From assembly GCA_028287415.1 (NCBI GenBank), contig JAQBPS010000808.1, positions 1 to 11,514 on the forward strand: a stretch of 11,514 bases of DNA, in the 5' to 3' direction. A model generated the notes under the pieces. It did not search any database and was not told the origin of the DNA. It worked only from the letters and a program-made list of their open reading frames with translations. The translations under genes and the position numbers were made by a program. The stretch's first letter is position 1. Each line of letters begins with the position of its first letter. Shown one piece after another: positions 334-10,571 of the stretch. This stretch comes from Bacillota bacterium. Its GTDB lineage: Bacteria > Bacillota > Sulfobacillia > Symbiobacteriales > Symbiobacteriaceae.

Positions 334-936
334 TTATGGCTCCCGCCTCCAGATTTTAGCCTGCTCAAACTCCGCCGGCGTGTTGCAGTTGAAGAAGAGC
401 TGTTCGGGGTCGCCAAATTGGCGAATCTCAGCTTCGGTCACGGCACGGAGCAGCGCACCATCGAAGATCGACGTCAGGCGGAGGCGCCGGCTCTCCAGGT
501 GCGCCTGGATGCGTGGCAGCAGCGAGCGGCTGTAGATGGCGTGCATCGGCTCAAACTCGCCGTCCAGCTGCGGTACGACGATATCGTGGCCGGGAGCCAA
601 CGCAGCCAGATGCCGGACCAAGGCCTCATTCACGAACGGCATGTCGCAGGCACAAAAGAAGGCATGATCAAAGCGGCTGGCGGTAAGCCCCGCCTCCAGC
701 CCGCCGAGCGGGCCGAGGCCGGGCACGCGGTCAGCGGTCATGGGCAGGTCCAGGAAGGCGTAAACGTCGGGCGTGTTGGTCACCACCACGACCTGGGCAA
801 ACCAGCGTTGAAACCGCCGGGCGAGGCGCTGGACGAGCGGTTCGCCCTCAAAGTCCAGCAGGGCCTTGTTCACCCCCATGCGGCTGGACTTGCCACCTGC
901 CAGAATCACGCCGCAGGCGTTCAGTTGGGCTTCCAT
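334..936 (-). CDS. mobA: Molybdenum cofactor guanylyltransferase MobA
   Basis: This 200-residue protein links GMP to molybdopterin to make the guanine dinucleotide form of the molybdenum cofactor, using GTP in the cytoplasm. The family signature LAGGKSSRMG is at residues 12-21 with the following Lys24 (nucleotide-binding loop), GPLGGL is at 75-80, and CDMPF at 97-101 carries the metal-binding Asp98. The length matches MobA, which is usually about 190-200 residues. I chose ATG 936 because GAGGTGA sits 7 bases upstream and the protein then begins just ahead of the nucleotide-binding loop; the longer frame from 957 adds seven residues inside the preceding gene. The start overlaps the stop of the damaged LCP gene by 16 bases, which suggests translational coupling in a leftward operon. 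Its presence implies at least one molybdoenzyme of the MGD type elsewhere in the genome. Confidence 0.93.
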   Translation of the reverse strand: MEAQLNACGVILAGGKSSRMGVNKALLDFEGEPLVQRLARRFQRWFAQVVVVTNTPDVYAFLDLPMTADRVPGLGPLGGLEAGLTASRFDHAFFCACDMPFVNEALVRHLAALAPGHDIVVPQLDGEFEPMHAIYSRSLLPRIQAHLESRRLRLTSIFDGALLRAVTEAEIRQFGDPEQLFFNCNTPAEFEQAKIWRREP

Positions 937-1707
937 GCGTGCGTCACCTCGTTCCATTTCGTGCGGTCGAGCAGCCAGTCGCCCGATGCATCGTCGGGCG
1001 TCCCGGGCAGCATCTGCACGGCCACGTTGTTGCGAGCCTTGAACAGGGCAACTGCCAATTGCAGCTGATCCGCCGCGGGCAGGTTCGTATGGAGATTATC
1101 ACGCATTGTGCCGGCCAGGCTGCGTGCCTGGAACAACGTTGCGGGCGAGAGCAGCGCCTGGCGCAGGGCCTGGAGGAACTGCTGTTGCCGCCCAATGCGG
1201 GCGATGTCGCTGTTGGTCACCCCGTCGTACCGGAGCCGGACAAATTCCAGGGCGGTCTTGCCGTCCATCTGCTGGCGCCCGGCCGGGATGTTGATGTGCA
1301 GATCCTGATAGGGATCATCATAGACGTAATGTTTGTCGACCGTCATTTCGACGCCGCCCAGCTGGTCAACGATCTGGACGAATGCCTGGAAGTTCATCGA
1401 CACGTAGTACGGACGGGGCACGCCCAACGCACTGCTGACGACTTCCGTGACGAAATCAGCACCGCCGGTACTGTAGGCGGCGTTGATTTTCGATCGCCGG
1501 CGGCTGCCCCGCCACCATCCGGGGGGCGCTGCCCTCCGCTTTGAGCGGGAGGCCGTCCCGTACGGTGGTCCAGGTGCGCCAGCCGGCCAGCGGGAGCAGG
1601 AGGACCAGGAGTAGCGCAAGGCGGCGGGACCAATACTGCGGGCGTTTATGCGGCCGGCGCTGCCGTGGGGCCTGGGGCTGGGCCGGAGCCGGAACTGTCG
1701 TTGCCAA
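921..1707 (-). pseudogene. LytR-CpsA-Psr (LCP) family protein, internally deleted and frameshifted
   Basis: LCP proteins are membrane-anchored enzymes that transfer glycopolymers from undecaprenyl carriers to peptidoglycan. The N-terminal part starts at TTG 1707, with GGAGG 8 bases upstream: a Pro/Arg-rich cytosolic tail, then a membrane helix (LALLLVLLLPLAGW, residues 30-43). That frame stops at 1456. The C-terminal half is in another frame from about 1490: KINAAYSTGG, then DDPYQDLHI, MDGKTALEFVRLRYDG and IARIGRQQQFLQAL, all typical of the second half of the LCP domain. The first half of the domain, with the LLLGxDxR, RSDT and SIPRDT motifs, is absent: about 30 residues separate membrane helix and KINAAY where roughly 100 or more are usual. 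The gene as written cannot make a complete LCP enzyme. A real deletion or a collapsed assembly would both explain it. It overlaps mobA downstream. Confidence 0.85.
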
Positions 1708-1838
1708 TCGCTAAGCCTCCGATCGGATCCGGGCTGTGGCGGGGGTAAATCCGCCACTCGTTAATTTCGTGATGCCGAACCACATTCCTACGTAGTGGTA
1801 GCACTCAGTCGGCGCCTGGACCGGCTGGTGCTGGCATG

Positions 1839-2265: not shown

Positions 2266-3081
2266 CTACTTGCTCCCGGCTCCCCATGCTTCGTAGACGG
2301 CCTGGGAGACCCTGGCCAGGGTGAGCGAGCCCTCGTTATCGTGGTAGAAACGGCGGTCCTTGCAATCCTTGGAGAACATGCTGAGCACGTAGGTCGCCGC
2401 GGGCGCCCAGATCAGGGCGACGTCGTTGCGCACGCCCCGTATCCAGCCGCTCTTGGAGGCGATTTGCACGGCTGGCGTGTCATCCTCCGAGTCGGTCTCC
2501 GGGAGGTACCGGTTGGTCAGTTCCTTGTGCTTCTGCCGCTTGAGAATATCGATCAGTTCCAGGCAGGCCTGCGGGTTGATCACGTCATGCCGGGCGATCA
2601 GCTCCATCAGCCGGGCCATGCCCGCCGGCGTGGCCTCACCGAGGGGCAGCTCCAAATGGATGCCGATCTTGCGGTTCATGCGGACGCCAAGGACCTCAAG
2701 CTCCCGCATGCTCTCGTTCAGCGCCGTAGTACCGCACAGGTCGACGAGCATGTTGGTGGCCGTGTTGTCGCTGACAACGATCATGAGGGTGGCGACATCC
2801 CGGATGCTCAGCTCGATGCCGGGGGTCAGGTCGCTCAGCACGCCGGAGCCGTCCACCATGTTGGCTGCGGTCAGGGTCAGCTTGTCCGAGAGGTCCCAAC
2901 GGCCGAGGGAAGCGCCCTTGAAGATCTCGTACAGCAGGGGCAGTTTGATGGTGCTGGCCGGGTAAAAGCTGAGGCCGCCCTGGTGGTCGAACCGCTCGCC
3001 AGTGGTGAGGTTGACGGCGGCAATGCCGAGGGTGCCACTGAAAGCCTGGTCGATCGTCGCAACGCGGGATGCAAGGTCCAT
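2266..3081 (-). CDS. Class A beta-lactamase-like serine hydrolase
   Basis: This 271-residue protein has the fold signature of class A beta-lactamases and related penicillin-recognising hydrolases: STIK with nucleophile Ser43 and Lys46, SDN at 104-106, and KSG at 210-212. The general base loop of true class A enzymes (ExxxN, Glu166 in standard numbering) is not recognisable; the stretch between SDN and TPAGMARLMELI is about five residues shorter than in TEM, with only IHLELPLGEA in that place. No signal peptide or membrane helix precedes the domain, so it appears cytoplasmic, odd for an antibiotic-degrading enzyme. ATG 3081 has AGGAGG 10 bases upstream. It lies 90 bases after the stop of the exporter gene on the same strand and may be cotranscribed with it. 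The safest name is beta-lactamase-related serine hydrolase, substrate unknown. Confidence 0.85.
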   Translation of the reverse strand: MDLASRVATIDQAFSGTLGIAAVNLTTGERFDHQGGLSFYPASTIKLPLLYEIFKGASLGRWDLSDKLTLTAANMVDGSGVLSDLTPGIELSIRDVATLMIVVSDNTATNMLVDLCGTTALNESMRELEVLGVRMNRKIGIHLELPLGEATPAGMARLMELIARHDVINPQACLELIDILKRQKHKELTNRYLPETDSEDDTPAVQIASKSGWIRGVRNDVALIWAPAATYVLSMFSKDCKDRRFYHDNEGSLTLARVSQAVYEAWGAGSK

Positions 3082-4968: not shown

Positions 4969-5047
4969 GCGGGGTCCTTTTCGCTTGACGGGGGCCGGAC
5001 AGGTCGCGTTAACTAGGAGGAAGAGCCATCATCAGGAGGTGCCGGCA

Positions 5048-6283
5048 TTGCTCAAAGTCAACGCGGAACGTCTCAACCAGCGCCTGGCCTTCTTGTCACA
5101 GTTCGGCAGCAGACCCGACGGGGGCGTCACCCGGTATGCCCTCTCGGCCGAGGAAAAGGCTGCGACCGACACGGTTGCGGGGTGGATGGCTGAGGCCGGC
5201 CTTGAGGTGCGGCGGGACGCTGTCGGCAACCTGTTCGGGCGGCTGGCGGGCAAGCGGCAGGGGCCCGCGGTGCTCACCGGCTCCCACCTGGACAGCGTGC
5301 CCAATGGCGGCAACTACGATGGGCCGGCGGGCGTGCTCTGTGCCCTGGAGGCCGTCGCAGCGATGAAGGAGCAGGGGATTGTCCCGGCGCTGCCAATCGA
5401 GGTGGTCAGCTTCATCGGGGAGGAGGGGAGCCGCTTCGCGTGGGGGCTGCTGGGCTCGAGCTTCCTGGCGGGCGAATTCCCGGTTGCGCAGATCGGCGAG
5501 TTGAAGGATCGGAGCGGGGTGACCCTGGCGGATGCGCTCCGTAGCTACGGGGCGAACCCGGAGGCGGCGCGTACTGCGAAGGTGGAGCCGGGCGCCTACA
5601 AGGCGTATGTAGAGGTGCACATCGAGCAGTCGGGGCTGCTGGAGGCGAGGGGGCTGCCGGTCGGCATCGTGAGCGGGATTGCCGGCATGTGCCAGCTGAC
5701 GGGCGTGATTCGGGGTCGGGCGGAGCATGCGGGGGCCTGTCCGATGGAGCTGCGGCGGGATCCGATGCCGGCGGCGGCTGAGGTGGTCCTGGAGGTGGAG
5801 CGGGCGGCGCGGGAGTCGGGGCCTAGCACTCGTGCGACGGTTGGGTTTGTGCAGGCGAGGCCGGGTGCGGCGAATGTGATTCCTGAGTCGGTTGAGTTGA
5901 GTTTTGATATTCGTGATTTGGATGCGGAGCGGCGGGATGCTTGTGTGGAGCGGGTGAGTTCGTACTTCCGGGCGGTGTGTGAGCGTCGCGGGTTGAGCGG
6001 GGAGATGGTGCTTCAGCATACGTCTACGCCGATTCGTTGTGATGATGGTGTGGTTGGCGTAATGAGGGATGCGGCGGCGGTTGTTGGGGTGGAGCCGTTT
6101 GAGCTGGCGAGTGGGGCGGTTCATGATGGGGCTAATGTGGCTGCTGTGTGCCCGGTGGGCATGATCTTCCTGAGGAGTCGTGATGGGTTGAGTCATGCGC
6201 CTGGGGAGTTTACGTCGGTTGAGGATGTTGGTGTTGGTTGTCAGTTGTTGGGTGAGACGTTGGTGCGGTTGGCTGGGGCGTAG
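5048..6283 (+). CDS. M20-family amidohydrolase, N-carbamoyl-L-amino acid hydrolase / allantoate amidohydrolase type
   Basis: A 411-residue metal-dependent amidase that would cleave an N-carbamoyl or ureido group, as in hydantoin, pyrimidine or allantoin breakdown. Visible motifs: GSHLDSVPNGGNYDGPAGV (78-96) with His80 and Asp91, GEEGSRF (124-130) with the Glu pair, YVEVHIEQSGLLEARG (187-202) with His191, EHAGACPMELRRDPM (226-240), and GAVHDGANVA plus SRDGLSHAPGEFTS near the C-terminus (His359, His383). The length fits the family. Start TTG 5048 is preceded by AGGAGGTG with a 6-base gap; the open frame reaches back to TTG 4985 without a comparable site. Substrate cannot be fixed: the same motifs serve carbamoylases, beta-ureidopropionases and allantoate hydrolases, and no pathway neighbours help. 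From about codon 270 the third positions switch from C/G to T/G, a clear compositional break. Confidence 0.88.
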   Translation: MLKVNAERLNQRLAFLSQFGSRPDGGVTRYALSAEEKAATDTVAGWMAEAGLEVRRDAVGNLFGRLAGKRQGPAVLTGSHLDSVPNGGNYDGPAGVLCALEAVAAMKEQGIVPALPIEVVSFIGEEGSRFAWGLLGSSFLAGEFPVAQIGELKDRSGVTLADALRSYGANPEAARTAKVEPGAYKAYVEVHIEQSGLLEARGLPVGIVSGIAGMCQLTGVIRGRAEHAGACPMELRRDPMPAAAEVVLEVERAARESGPSTRATVGFVQARPGAANVIPESVELSFDIRDLDAERRDACVERVSSYFRAVCERRGLSGEMVLQHTSTPIRCDDGVVGVMRDAAAVVGVEPFELASGAVHDGANVAAVCPVGMIFLRSRDGLSHAPGEFTSVEDVGVGCQLLGETLVRLAGA

Positions 6284-6302
6284 GGCGGTTAGGTTAGGCG
6301 GT

Positions 6303-6594
6303 CGGGCGCCGCTCGGAGTGTCCCTGCTCCATGGATACTGCGCCAACGGGCAGTAGGCTGCCTTACAGGGCGCCATTTTTCGGAAGCGCGGTTGCAGGGA
6401 ACGCCATTAGGGACGCACCGCCCGAGAGCGACGCCAGTCGCACGAGCCCGGCAGGCGTTTCCTTTGGAAACGCCGAGAGGGGAATAATGGCGGCTGGCGG
6501 AGCGGCCAACTGCCCGTAAGCTCCGTCTCCGTACGTCGCTACGGGACACTGCCGACCGGCGCCCGCCCCCGGTGTTGCCCAGCCCCCCTTTTTG
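6303..6594. repeat. Nested palindromic repeat element, copy A
   Basis: This copy is alignable over its whole length with 7186-7467 in the same orientation, with long identical blocks such as GCGCCAACGGGCAGTAGGCT, GAGCCCGGCAGGC and TTCCTTTGGAAACGCCGAGAG. It folds on itself through successive nested pairs: CGGGCGCC 6303-6310 with 6558-6565; AGTGTCCC 6317-6324 with 6543-6550; ACGGGCAGT 6346-6354 with 6509-6517; CGCCATTTTT 6371-6380 with 6483-6492 (one mismatch); and the apical hairpin GGCGTTTCC-TTT-GGAAACGCC 6454-6474. A side hairpin CCGTA/TACGG lies at 6529-6545. It begins 20 bases after the amidohydrolase stop. It could be a structured RNA or a palindromic mobile repeat; no known family is recognised. 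Confidence 0.8.
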
Positions 6595-6621
6595 CCTGCC
6601 CGTAGAGTCTGTTAGGGGCCA

Positions 6622-6652
6622 GCCCCCATGACGTCATGGCCGGCATGGGGGC
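6622..6652. repeat. GCCCCCATG hairpin
   Basis: GCCCCCATG (6622-6630) pairs perfectly with CATGGGGGC (6644-6652). An overlapping 14-base perfect palindrome CCATGACGTCATGG (6626-6639) offers an alternative fold. The CCCCC(A)TGACG beginning matches the stems of the two CCCCCGTGACG hairpins elsewhere in the window. No T-run follows. Confidence 0.5.
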
Positions 6653-6733
6653 ATCGGCTCCGGCGCAGGTTGGCCCTCTTGCACTGGAGCCGGTCAGGTT
6701 TCCCCGTCGAAGGCTAGTTGACCGTAACGAACG

Positions 6734-6787
6734 AAACGTCACCATTTTTCCGCCATTGGCAACGCAGGTGCAAAAATGGTGACGTTT
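6734..6787. repeat. Long hairpin, copy 1 (16-bp perfect inverted repeat)
   Basis: AAACGTCACCATTTTT (6734-6749) and its exact reverse complement (6772-6787) enclose a 22-base loop. The A/T pairs are at the apex and no T-run follows the stem, so it does not look like a terminator. It is preceded by GTTGACC (6717-6723) and TAACG, as the second copy is preceded by GTTGACA and TAACA. Confidence 0.8.
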
Positions 6788-6956
6788 GATGAGTGCCATT
6801 GCCTCTCCGTCCATAGTGTGAGCAGTACCGGTTAGCAGCTCAAGGTGGGAAATGCAGGCGGGGTGCGGTCTGCACGAATCCGGCTTGCGAACTGGGGACA
6901 GCTGCGTTCGCCGGGGGGCCCGCATCCAGGCCATTTGGTTGACATAACACGAGAAA

Positions 6957-7014
6957 CGTCATCATTTTTCCTGCCTGGGCCATCGGGGCCATCGGCAGTG
7001 GAAAAATGATGACG
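6957..7014. repeat. Long hairpin, copy 2 (15-bp perfect inverted repeat)
   Basis: CGTCATCATTTTTCC (6957-6971) pairs exactly with 7000-7014, with a further TGCC/GGCA stem inside (6972-6975 / 6994-6997) across a 2-base bulge. The loop contains a perfect 9-bp tandem duplication GGCCATCGG (6978-6986, 6987-6995). Compared with copy 1, one stem pair is changed on both sides (C-G to T-A), preserving pairing. The upstream flank also matches copy 1. Confidence 0.8.
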
Positions 7015-7070
7015 ATCCATGAGCAGCGAGTATGCCGCCCCCTTTCGTGCCCTTGCGATCGGCCATCCCC

Positions 7071-7130
7071 GGCCCGCTGCAGGTCGACCGGGCCGCTCCG
7101 TGTCGCACCTGCCCGCTGCAGGTCGCCCAC
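7071..7130. repeat. Three degenerate 19-20-bp tandem units
   Basis: GCCCGCTGCAGGTCG occurs at 7072-7086 and 7111-7125, 39 bases apart. The segment between them (GCCGCTCCGTGTCG from 7092) is a degenerate third copy, giving three head-to-tail units of 19-20 bases. Confidence 0.5.
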
Positions 7131-7185
7131 AGCCGCGGTGAGCCCGCCATCTCTTCGACCCAGGGCCTTGAATGTTTTTCCACGC

Positions 7186-7467
7186 CGGGCCCCGCTCGCG
7201 AGTGTCCCTGGTCCACGGCTATTGCGCCAACGGGCAGTAGGCTATCTTACCGGGCGCCGTTTTTGCGGAACCGCGCTCATAGGGATCGCCTTGAGGGACG
7301 CCCCGCCCGACGGCGACGTCAGGCGCACGAGCCCGGCAGGCATTTCCTTTGGAAACGCCGAGAGAGGAAAAATGGCGGCTGGCCAACTTCCCGTAGGCTC
7401 TTCTCCGTGACGTCGCTACGGGACACTCGACCGGCGCCTGCCCCCTGTGTTCCCAGTCCCCCCTTTG
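7186..7467. repeat. Nested palindromic repeat element, copy B
   Basis: This is the second, diverged copy of the 6303-6594 element, in direct orientation about 880 bp away. The same nested pairs are kept: CGAGTGTCCC 7199-7208 with 7420-7429 (10 bp, longer than in copy A); ACGGGCAGT 7230-7238 with 7386-7394 (one mismatch); CGCCGTTTTT 7255-7264 with AAAAATGGCG 7368-7377 (all pair, one as G-T); and the apical hairpin 7339-7359 with one A/C mismatch. The outermost arm is weaker. It ends 9 bases from the SRPBCC stop. Confidence 0.8.
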
Positions 7468-7475
7468 TGAGGGGG

Positions 7476-7907
7476 CTATGGCGTTTCGACCAGGTTTTTT
7501 AGTTTTCCGAGGAAATGTCGGTCGTACTTGGCGACTCGGCGGGCCATGAACAGTTTTTCGATGAGGCGGCCGATCAACCCTTTCAGGTGGAACTCGTCTC
7601 TCAGCAGGACGACTGTGGCGCCCTCTTTGGGCGCCAGGAGGAAGGTCATGCGGTAGGTGGCTTTGTTGTCGGCGCCTTCCCACGCCAGGGTGCGGTTTTC
7701 GGCGTACTCCGTGACCGTAGCCTCGTAGCCGAAGCGCTTGGGGCCGCTCTGGCCGGTGACGCTGATGCGGCTGCCTTTGGCGAGGGGGCCGGGGGAGAGT
7801 ACCCGGATCTCCGGGCCGTACCATTGCTTCATCCGCTCGGGCCGGAAGCGGTTCCAGACCCGGCTCGGCGAGGCATTGATCCGCTCTGTGGTGTCACAAC
7901 GGGCCAT
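7476..7907 (-). CDS. SRPBCC-fold (START/polyketide-cyclase-like) protein
   Basis: The 143-residue product has the pattern of the SRPBCC ligand-binding fold: an initial strand with ASPSRVWNRF (a helix after the first strand, residues 12-21), the WYGPEI turn with a following strand, paired strands around GSRISVTG, YEATVTEYAENRTLAW and YRMTFLLAPKEGATVVLLRDEF, and a long C-terminal helix from about residue 108 to the end (basic, ARRVAKYDRHFLGKLKNL). Members bind hydrophobic ligands or act as cyclases or heat-shock activators; nothing here fixes the ligand. No signal peptide is present. ATG 7907 has GGAGG 10 bases upstream. It is transcribed away from hpt, sharing a 129-base intergenic region, and its 3' end touches repeat copy B. 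Confidence 0.8.
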   Translation of the reverse strand: MARCDTTERINASPSRVWNRFRPERMKQWYGPEIRVLSPGPLAKGSRISVTGQSGPKRFGYEATVTEYAENRTLAWEGADNKATYRMTFLLAPKEGATVVLLRDEFHLKGLIGRLIEKLFMARRVAKYDRHFLGKLKNLVETP

Positions 7908-10237: not shown

Positions 10238-10263
10238 CGCATTGGTGGAGCCTCCGCGGGACA

Positions 10264-10398
10264 TTTATATGGCCACGGATTGCGGGTTACACCGATTTAT
10301 GGAGAAACACCGATTGATACATAAAAATATATATTTTACCTGGTCATCAGTGTTTGAATTTAAAATCCGTGAAACCCGTGAAATCCGTGGCCATTAAA
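10264..10398. repeat. AT-rich long palindromic element
   Basis: ATGGCCACGGATT (10269-10281) is the exact reverse complement of 10382-10394. Inside this the arms stay related (CGGGTTACACCGATTT against a region reading AAAATCCGTGAAACCCG), with AAACAC/GTGTTT arms further in. The centre (10324-10337) is a perfect self-complementary AAAATATATATTTT. The outer arm extends by TTTA/TAAA across a one-base bulge. The central part is far more AT-rich than the rest of the window. ATCCGTG repeats at 9-10-base spacing in the right arm. Confidence 0.85.
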
Positions 10399-10571
10399 GG
10401 CAACTACAGTAGCAGACAAGCGATCGATCAGCTACGTCGGTCCCGCTTTTTTTCGTTAAACCTCGAACAACAGGCGGTACGATTCGTACTTAATAGTGAG
10501 TGCATGAACATCCACAATTACAGCCCGGTGCTGGTGGGGGCTATCCGGTAGACAAGAGGAGCGTGTCGCCT
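10399..10571. other. Upstream region of the DUF1444 gene
   Basis: No gene is seen. It contains a T-run at 10447-10453 with no good stem before it, and a perfect inverted repeat GTACGA-T-TCGTAC (10477-10489) about 80 bases before the gene, which could be an operator. No convincing promoter pair was found, although TAATAG and TACGAT are possible -10 boxes. Confidence 0.4.

What the first reader, a model, noticed from the sequence alone, without database searches (positions are those of the whole stretch)
6303..7467. Two copies of an unrecognised nested palindromic element fill a convergent intergenic region
Copies at 6303-6594 and 7186-7467 share a complete series of nested complementary arms plus an apical hairpin, and in several arms the copies differ in ways that keep pairing (G-T in place of A-T in the CGCC(A/G)TTTTT arm; an AGTGTCCC arm that is longer in copy B). 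The whole ~265-base unit could fold as one structure. Each copy abuts the 3' end of a flanking gene. I recognise no Rfam class or insertion sequence; a structured ncRNA (including a HEARO/omega-type or intron-derived RNA) or a palindromic mobile repeat both fit.
Basis: partly seen in the sequence, partly recalled or inferred. Interest (0 to 1): 0.72.

Follow-up and report, generated by a model that had tools for sequence, protein, structure and literature searches.

The report
Multi-copy structured hairpin repeat in Symbiobacteriaceae
Two copies of a long folded hairpin sequence sit between the genes here; they belong to a scattered repeat family whose shape is kept while its letters change, and the DNA beside many copies carries an unusual one-sided base bias.

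Summary
Copies A and B are 84% identical long imperfect hairpins, from a family with at least 22 copies in the own genome and 7 in a second genome of the same family. Other relatives and a 398-genome phylum sample gave no convincing match; no Rfam family matches.

Pairing is kept by compensatory change: 67 double-change cells against 19 in shuffles; in 21 of 24 copies the 5' arm pairs best with its own 3' arm. Some copies carry an extra ~60-nt module. Outer-arm mismatches favour the minus strand as the folded one (25 to 4); core counts do not.

Copies lie beside unrelated genes in either orientation. One site is shared between genera, two are empty in relatives. No conserved ends, target duplication or Y1 transposase was found.

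Unexpectedly, flanking DNA is C-depleted on one strand, in a ~1 kb gradient toward the element. Three of four neighbouring genes compared are less skewed in relatives without the element; HU is not. Mobility and function remain inferred.

The parts
6297..6570 (-). Copy A, long-type hairpin element; minus strand is the folded strand as inferred from the outer arms
7188..7438 (-). Copy B, long-type hairpin element, 84% identical to copy A
6345..6518 (-). Conserved core of copy A (helix A with A.A mismatch, helix B, apical region, module)
   Evidence: model R1 match; pair counts
7229..7395 (-). Conserved core of copy B
   Evidence: model R1 match; pair counts
6423..6481 (-). Optional two-hairpin module in copy A, absent from short-type copies
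   Evidence: module sequence, coordinates read; alignment
7308..7366 (-). Optional two-hairpin module in copy B
   Evidence: module sequence, coordinates read; alignment
5101..6296 (+). Flank of copy A, mostly inside the M20 gene: plus-strand GC skew rises from +0.14 (5101-5400) to +0.51 (6001-6300) toward the element
4985..6283 (+). Peptidase M20-family gene whose 3' end abuts copy A
7476..7907 (-). Polyketide_cyc2/SRPBCC-like gene whose 3' end abuts copy B

Best explanation
A family of non-coding, dispersed hairpin elements. SHOWN: many copies per genome in two genera; pairing of one rod-like fold kept by compensatory change (conserved core, copy-specific co-evolving arms, optional module); strand-asymmetric mismatches in the outer arms; copies present at some sites and absent from the same sites in relatives, and kept at one site; a one-sided C-depletion gradient in flanking DNA. 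INFERRED: the unit acts as a folded single strand (RNA or ssDNA, probably the window's minus strand) and spreads, or spread, as a passenger of an enzyme not identified. The hairpin also acts on its DNA site: polymerases stall at it, or a hairpin nuclease such as SbcCD cuts it, so the flanking plus strand is repeatedly single-stranded and accumulates C-to-T and some A-to-G changes.
For: 22 copies in own genome, 7 in G002. 94.8% of pair cells paired vs 80.3% shuffled; 67 double-change cells vs 19.1 shuffled and 8-19 in slid versions. Own arms pair best in 21 of 24 copies, mean score 37.4 vs 16.3 swapped. Outer-arm isolated mismatches: A.C 32, G.T 7, other 31, the others all pyrimidine-pyrimidine on plus; 25 to 4 after collapsing, p 1e-4. 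Shared site etfA-element-3-hydroxyacyl-CoA dehydrogenase in two genera. Empty sites HU-S4 (G001-G005) and LytS-LytR (G001, G003, G004). Left-flank GC skew mean +0.19, 20 of 23 positive, falling to about 0 by 1.5 kb; weaker in orthologous S4, LytR and LytS genes without the element.
Against: No mobilising enzyme found; no target duplication or conserved termini. Core counts do not favour the minus strand: G.T 10 vs A.C 3 by column, isolated mismatches 10 minus vs 7 plus. Right-flank skew depends on gene orientation, which a simple two-sided break does not predict. The HU gene and the own genome's etfA end beside copies are not skewed, nor is the gene beside G2C104. Absence in a relative may be loss rather than gain elsewhere. 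No transcript data. Own genome 77.8% complete.
Confidence: 0.5

Rival explanations
1. A trans-acting structured non-coding RNA, present in many copies, expressed from its own promoter and bound by a dedicated protein; dispersal is duplication rather than transposition.
For: Conserved core with kept motifs (A.A mismatch in 20 of 21 copies), variable closing stem that still pairs, minus-strand MFE lower in 18 of 26 copies, a site kept between genera.
Against: No promoter search was run on the flanks; by eye no shared sequence lies beside the copies. The apical region is replaced or shortened in some copies. Does not explain the flank gradient.
Confidence: 0.22
2. An element acting in mRNA (ERIC/NEMIS-like): a co-transcribed hairpin that changes transcript stability or termination of neighbouring genes.
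For: Copies lie beside genes, in eight cases with the core 50-104 nt after the end of a gene in plus orientation; long stable hairpins.
Against: Orientation is mixed even inside co-directional gene pairs: minus strand antisense in six (C199, C210, C202, C445, C595; G2C244) and sense in five (C195, G2C74, G2C91; G2C294; C139, once one search identified its neighbour). No terminator-like U-run at a fixed place, by eye.
Confidence: 0.13
3. The flank skew came first: the elements settle preferentially where DNA is already single-stranded or R-loop prone, and do not cause the bias.
For: Right-flank skew appears mainly beside genes running in plus orientation, as transcription-linked exposure would give.
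Against: Orthologous S4, LytR and LytS genes without the element are less skewed, though only three genes; the left gradient peaks at the element.
Confidence: 0.15

Closest known systems
ERIC/IRU and Correia/NEMIS palindromic repeats (non-autonomous MITE-like elements)
   Same: Multi-copy small repeats whose transcripts form one long stem-loop by 5'-3' end pairing; NEMIS also comes with or without an internal segment of ~50 bp, compare the ~60-nt module here (PMC2229807: passages and section 6 read).
   Different: Those are ~100-200 bp with terminal inverted repeats, TA ends and target duplications (same paper). Here termini are not conserved and no target duplication was detected; conservation is central; arms differ between copies yet pair; flank composition gradient.
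REP/REPIN elements mobilised by RAYT (Y1) transposases
   Same: Palindromic, dispersed, extragenic repeats; a folded single-strand route is from recall.
   Different: REPs are 20-40 bp (abstract of PMC3733652 in a listing), these several times longer; no Y1_Tnp gene found in own genome or eight relatives.
HEARO / omega RNAs and other large structured RNAs in Rfam
   Same: Large conserved fold, several copies per genome (from recall).
   Different: No Rfam match at the element in the window or nine loci; no RRXRR protein found, test inconclusive.

Membership tests
ERIC/NEMIS-type MITE | conserved terminal inverted repeats with TA ends | tested here: not met
   TA outside the arm at 2 of 23 left and 2 of 23 right ends; no shared end sequence seen. 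Ends are defined only by loss of pairing.
ERIC/NEMIS-type MITE | target-site duplication | tested here: not met
   longest shared flank word 4.04 vs 4.07 for shuffled pairs, 23 of 29 copies; a duplication away from the inferred ends could be missed
ERIC/NEMIS-type MITE | multi-copy extragenic long stem-loop | tested here: met
   one of 24 copies overlaps a called ORF ahead of its first Pfam domain
REPIN/RAYT | Y1 transposase in the genome | tested here: not met
   0 of 9 genomes; control rings in 5 of 14; own genome 77.8% complete, G002 91%
Rfam RNA families incl. HEARO and introns | covariance-model match | tested here: not met
   window E<=1 (2 matches, elsewhere); nine loci E<=10 (11 matches, none at the element)
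IscB/omega RNA system | IscB (RRXRR) gene in the genome | tested here: inconclusive
   no hit in own genome, but the 14 control genomes also silent
Self-folding structured element (RNA or ssDNA) | compensatory base-pair changes above controls | tested here: met
Transcribed non-coding RNA | a transcript | not testable with these tools
   no RNA-seq available

The most novel reading that the evidence does not exclude
The element marks, or makes, a recurrent single-stranded DNA zone: a dispersed structured repeat that imposes a directional ~1 kb C-to-T (and weaker A-to-G) mutation gradient on neighbouring genes, either as a programmed mutator/initiation site or as the scar of repeated hairpin cleavage and resection.
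Probability: 0.35. Interest if true: 0.82.

Novelty: new variant of a known kind. Interest (0 to 1): 0.6.

Why it matters
It gives a structured repeat family without an Rfam match, with clear copy-by-copy co-evolution of its arms and a usable covariance model. The flanking composition gradient, weaker in three of the four orthologous genes compared that lack the element, makes testable whether chromosomal hairpin repeats leave or drive a strand-specific mutation footprint in bacteria.

Tried and rejected
Rfam with permissive thresholds: no match at the element; the microRNA-family matches at 10263-10399 fall on an unrelated inverted repeat. RRXRR/IscB and Y1 transposase: none. A genome-collection pattern scan gave 66 stretches; with one from the viral scan 67 were tested, and model R1 kept 2 at E<=0.1: the Symbiobacteriaceae record L083 (the same place as the G002 C204 copy) and an Arthrobacter match (L105, 52 nt against a 116-position model, away from the pattern match), taken as chance. 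Matches in G003 and G018 were judged false by eye. Target duplication and conserved ends: none. The window's SRPBCC gene has no match in six relatives, so the window site itself could not be compared with an empty site. A first count over whole local alignments gave G.T 52, A.C 72, other 275, no clear bias; the later count of isolated mismatches in the outer arms was biased. One search failed on a pattern and was repeated, whose trimming of copy C139 was wrong and was mended; a second trimming slip for C139 was mended.

Rows dropped, of 29 copies in all: A1 used 13 and A2 21 (left out: C371, C605, C817, which are cut or rearranged, and C746, G2C247, G2C294, G2C244, G2C204, found later). Searches used 26 (RNAalifold: 12), one search used 23, one search used 24. 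One search left out the left flanks of C145b and C423i and the right flanks of C145a and C423, and flanks shorter than 200 nt; one search kept C423i on the left. One search counts 32 A.C, one search counts 30 (alignment ties). A weak match at C779 was not inspected. Gene calls are by a simple ORF rule and include some doubtful ORFs.

Full report
WHERE IT IS. The window is contig C145 of an unnamed, fragmented assembly (822 contigs, 77.8% complete). G002, a genome of the same family, matches a record titled 'Symbiobacteriaceae bacterium isolate L_E1_T20_C_bin.52': the genome behind that record (G101) gave matches at the same contig coordinates as G002. Copies A and B lie between a peptidase M20-family gene (4985-6283, plus) and a Polyketide_cyc2/SRPBCC-like gene (7476-7907, minus), which converge.

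THE OBSERVATION. Copy B matches copy A at 84% identity. As plus-strand RNA, copy A is more stable than all 100 shuffles (z -2.99) and copy B than 191 of 200 (z -1.64); the minus strands give z -2.69 and -1.51. The spacer between the copies holds two smaller palindromes of its own.

A FAMILY. Sequence search finds 18 matching places in the own genome (some are pieces of one copy) and none in 60 relatives. A covariance model from 13 aligned cores (A1, R1) and a second from 21 (A2, R2) find more: in all 22 distinct copies in the own genome, of which C371 and C817 are cut by contig ends and C605 is rearranged or cut, and 7 in G002 (the weakest, C204, at E 0.005, keeps the core motifs by eye). Of 101 genomes searched with R1, 3 had a match: own, G002 and G003. 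Of 31 searched with R2, 4 had: own, G002, G003 and G018. The G003 and G018 matches were judged false by reading them. A sample of 398 genomes of the phylum, with stricter filters, matched only in the own genome.

ANATOMY. Two types exist. The long type, including both window copies, carries a module of 59-60 nt with two hairpins after a conserved CGC(A/C)CCGCC stretch; the short type lacks it at that point. The shared core has a helix A with a single A.A mismatch in 20 of 21 copies, a helix B, and an apical region with conserved unpaired stretches. In one subfamily and in some G002 copies the apical region is replaced or shortened.

COVARIATION. On A1, 9 of 24 pairs show double-sided change and 97.4% of cells pair (90.0% shuffled). 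On A2, 94.8% pair (80.3% shuffled), with 67 double-change cells (19.1 shuffled; 8-19 when the partner is slid) and covariation score 0.401 (0.149 shuffled). Pairs with a double change are 14 (9.8 shuffled, 1 of 500 shuffles reaching it); the number of further pair types (24 vs 22.3, 124 of 500 reaching it) does not exceed shuffles. Outer arms: in 21 of 24 copies the 5' arm pairs best with its own 3' arm (mean score 37.4 against 16.3 swapped); the exceptions are C677, C423i and C746. For the outermost 28 nt alone it is 17 of 24.

WHICH STRAND. Isolated mismatches between paired bases in the outer arms are A.C 32, G.T 7 and others 31; the others are all pyrimidine-pyrimidine on plus. Read on the minus strand these become G.U wobbles and purine-purine mismatches, kinds commonly tolerated in folded RNA (general knowledge). 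Collapsing similar sites leaves 25 for minus and 4 for plus (p 1e-4). Minus-strand folds are more stable in 18 of 26 copies, and RNAalifold gives -29.1 (minus) against -23.2 (plus) for 12 copies. Against this: in the core the isolated mismatches are 10 minus to 7 plus, and a column count over 25 core pairs gives G.T 10 and A.C 3, towards plus (helix A alone G.T 6, A.C 0). A cruder count over whole local alignments gave G.T 52 and A.C 72. So the minus strand is favoured by the arms only. G.T wobbles also occur in single-stranded DNA, so RNA is not proven.

SITES AND TURNOVER. By a simple ORF rule, 23 of 24 copies lie between genes (up to 60 nt overlap allowed); G2C91 overlaps a called ORF ahead of its first Pfam domain, and a called ORF overlaps the core of G2C294 by 30 nt. 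Neighbours are unrelated and orientations mixed: within co-directional pairs the minus strand is antisense in six cases and sense in five. The own genome's C139 copy and the G002 C74 copy occupy the same site, between etfA and a 3-hydroxyacyl-CoA dehydrogenase, proteins 78% and 73% identical. Elsewhere presence differs. Between HU and the S4-domain gene the own genome has a copy, while the printed spacers of G001-G005 (64-169 nt) hold none. Between LytS and LytR the own genome has a copy and G001, G003 and G004 have none; LytS was not found beside LytR in G002, G005 and G006. No Y1 transposase in nine genomes. No target duplication (4.04 against 4.07 shuffled) and no common terminal dinucleotide.

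AN UNEXPECTED FOOTPRINT. In the window, plus-strand GC skew climbs from +0.14 (5101-5400) to +0.51 (6001-6300), inside the M20 gene, and is about 0 inside the element. Over 23 left flanks the mean is +0.19 for GC skew and +0.16 for T-A skew, 20 of 23 positive for each; mean absolute values in 551 control windows of the same contigs are 0.075 and 0.098, and none of 20000 random draws reached the observed means. The 20 right flanks average +0.096 and +0.034, 14 and 11 positive. In distance bins the left GC skew falls from +0.213 (50-150 nt, 24 copies) to +0.009 (1.5-1.8 kb, 17 copies), not quite monotonically; C goes from 32% far out to 23% near, T from 18.5% to 25%. Both genomes show it, though in G002 the nearest GC-skew bin is lower (+0.105) than the next. 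Twelve left neighbours in plus orientation have +0.230 over their last 300 nt and +0.050 over their first, against +0.033 and +0.020 for 102 control genes; at third codon positions +0.306 against -0.023. Two of the twelve are hardly skewed (C445 +0.08, G2C104 -0.01). Nine left neighbours in the opposite orientation show the same plus-strand direction more weakly (coding strand -0.048 GC, -0.132 T-A over the first 300 nt). On the right, seven genes in plus orientation have +0.203 over their first 300 nt (control +0.020), eight in the opposite orientation +0.058 over their last 300 (control +0.033); in G002 the right flank is negative at 450-1000 nt.

ORTHOLOGS. S4 gene: +0.33 in the own genome against +0.03 to +0.18 in four relatives. 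LytR first 300 nt: +0.18 against -0.01 to +0.07 in six. LytS last 300 nt: +0.13 against 0.00 to +0.08 in three. Against: HU beside the same C445 copy is +0.06, inside the relatives' range (-0.05 to +0.15), and the etfA end beside the C139 copy is -0.03 while that beside the G002 copy is +0.35.

INTERPRETATION. The simplest account is a dispersed, non-coding hairpin element selected for its fold, mobile or once mobile by an unidentified route. C-to-T and A-to-G change on one strand is what prolonged single-strandedness produces (general knowledge). Hairpin cleavage and resection, polymerase stalling, or R-loops could each expose the plus strand; the dependence of the right flank on gene direction speaks for a transcription part. 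This is inference.

LITERATURE. Searches for Symbiobacterium or Symbiobacteriaceae with repeat, palindromic, intergenic, structured-RNA and small-RNA terms listed no paper whose title or abstract describes such an element; only listings were seen, and one search listed 10 of 1,201. Searches on ERIC-like repeats, HEARO, covarying repeats, skew and SbcCD were seen as listings; of PMC2229807 I read passages and one section.

CHECK.

Noticed in passing
window 6734-6787 and 6957-7014: Two related near-perfect palindromes with CGTCA(C/T)CATTTTT arms in the spacer between the copies; no further copies in the 25 contigs or loci checked with the window.
   Followed up: partly
window 10260-10400: Long inverted repeat around an AT-rich centre after guaA; gives weak microRNA-family matches in Rfam.
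   Followed up: no
L127 45-159 and 386-499; L128 3460-3572 and 3927-4037: Other copies also come in close pairs: a short-type pair ~340 nt apart in the same direction and a pair ~470 nt apart in opposite directions, of different subfamilies by eye.
   Followed up: partly
L124 (C139) helix A; L147 (C746) 3' arm: Extra sequence inside element copies: a ~80-nt insert in helix A of C139 and extra sequence in the 3' arm of C746.
   Followed up: partly
window ~7457-7475; also L129, L127, L131 beside their copies: CCCCC(T)n...GGGGG-like motifs recur close to several copies, perhaps another repeat or terminator (by eye).
   Followed up: no
window 921-1757: LytR_cpsA_psr gene looks split: the Pfam match starts at profile position 37 and an overlapping ORF 1456-1707 in another frame carries a plausible N-terminus, suggesting a frameshift or assembly error.
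   Followed up: no
window 2266-3081: Beta-lactamase2-family gene (PF13354) on the minus strand; described only.
   Followed up: no
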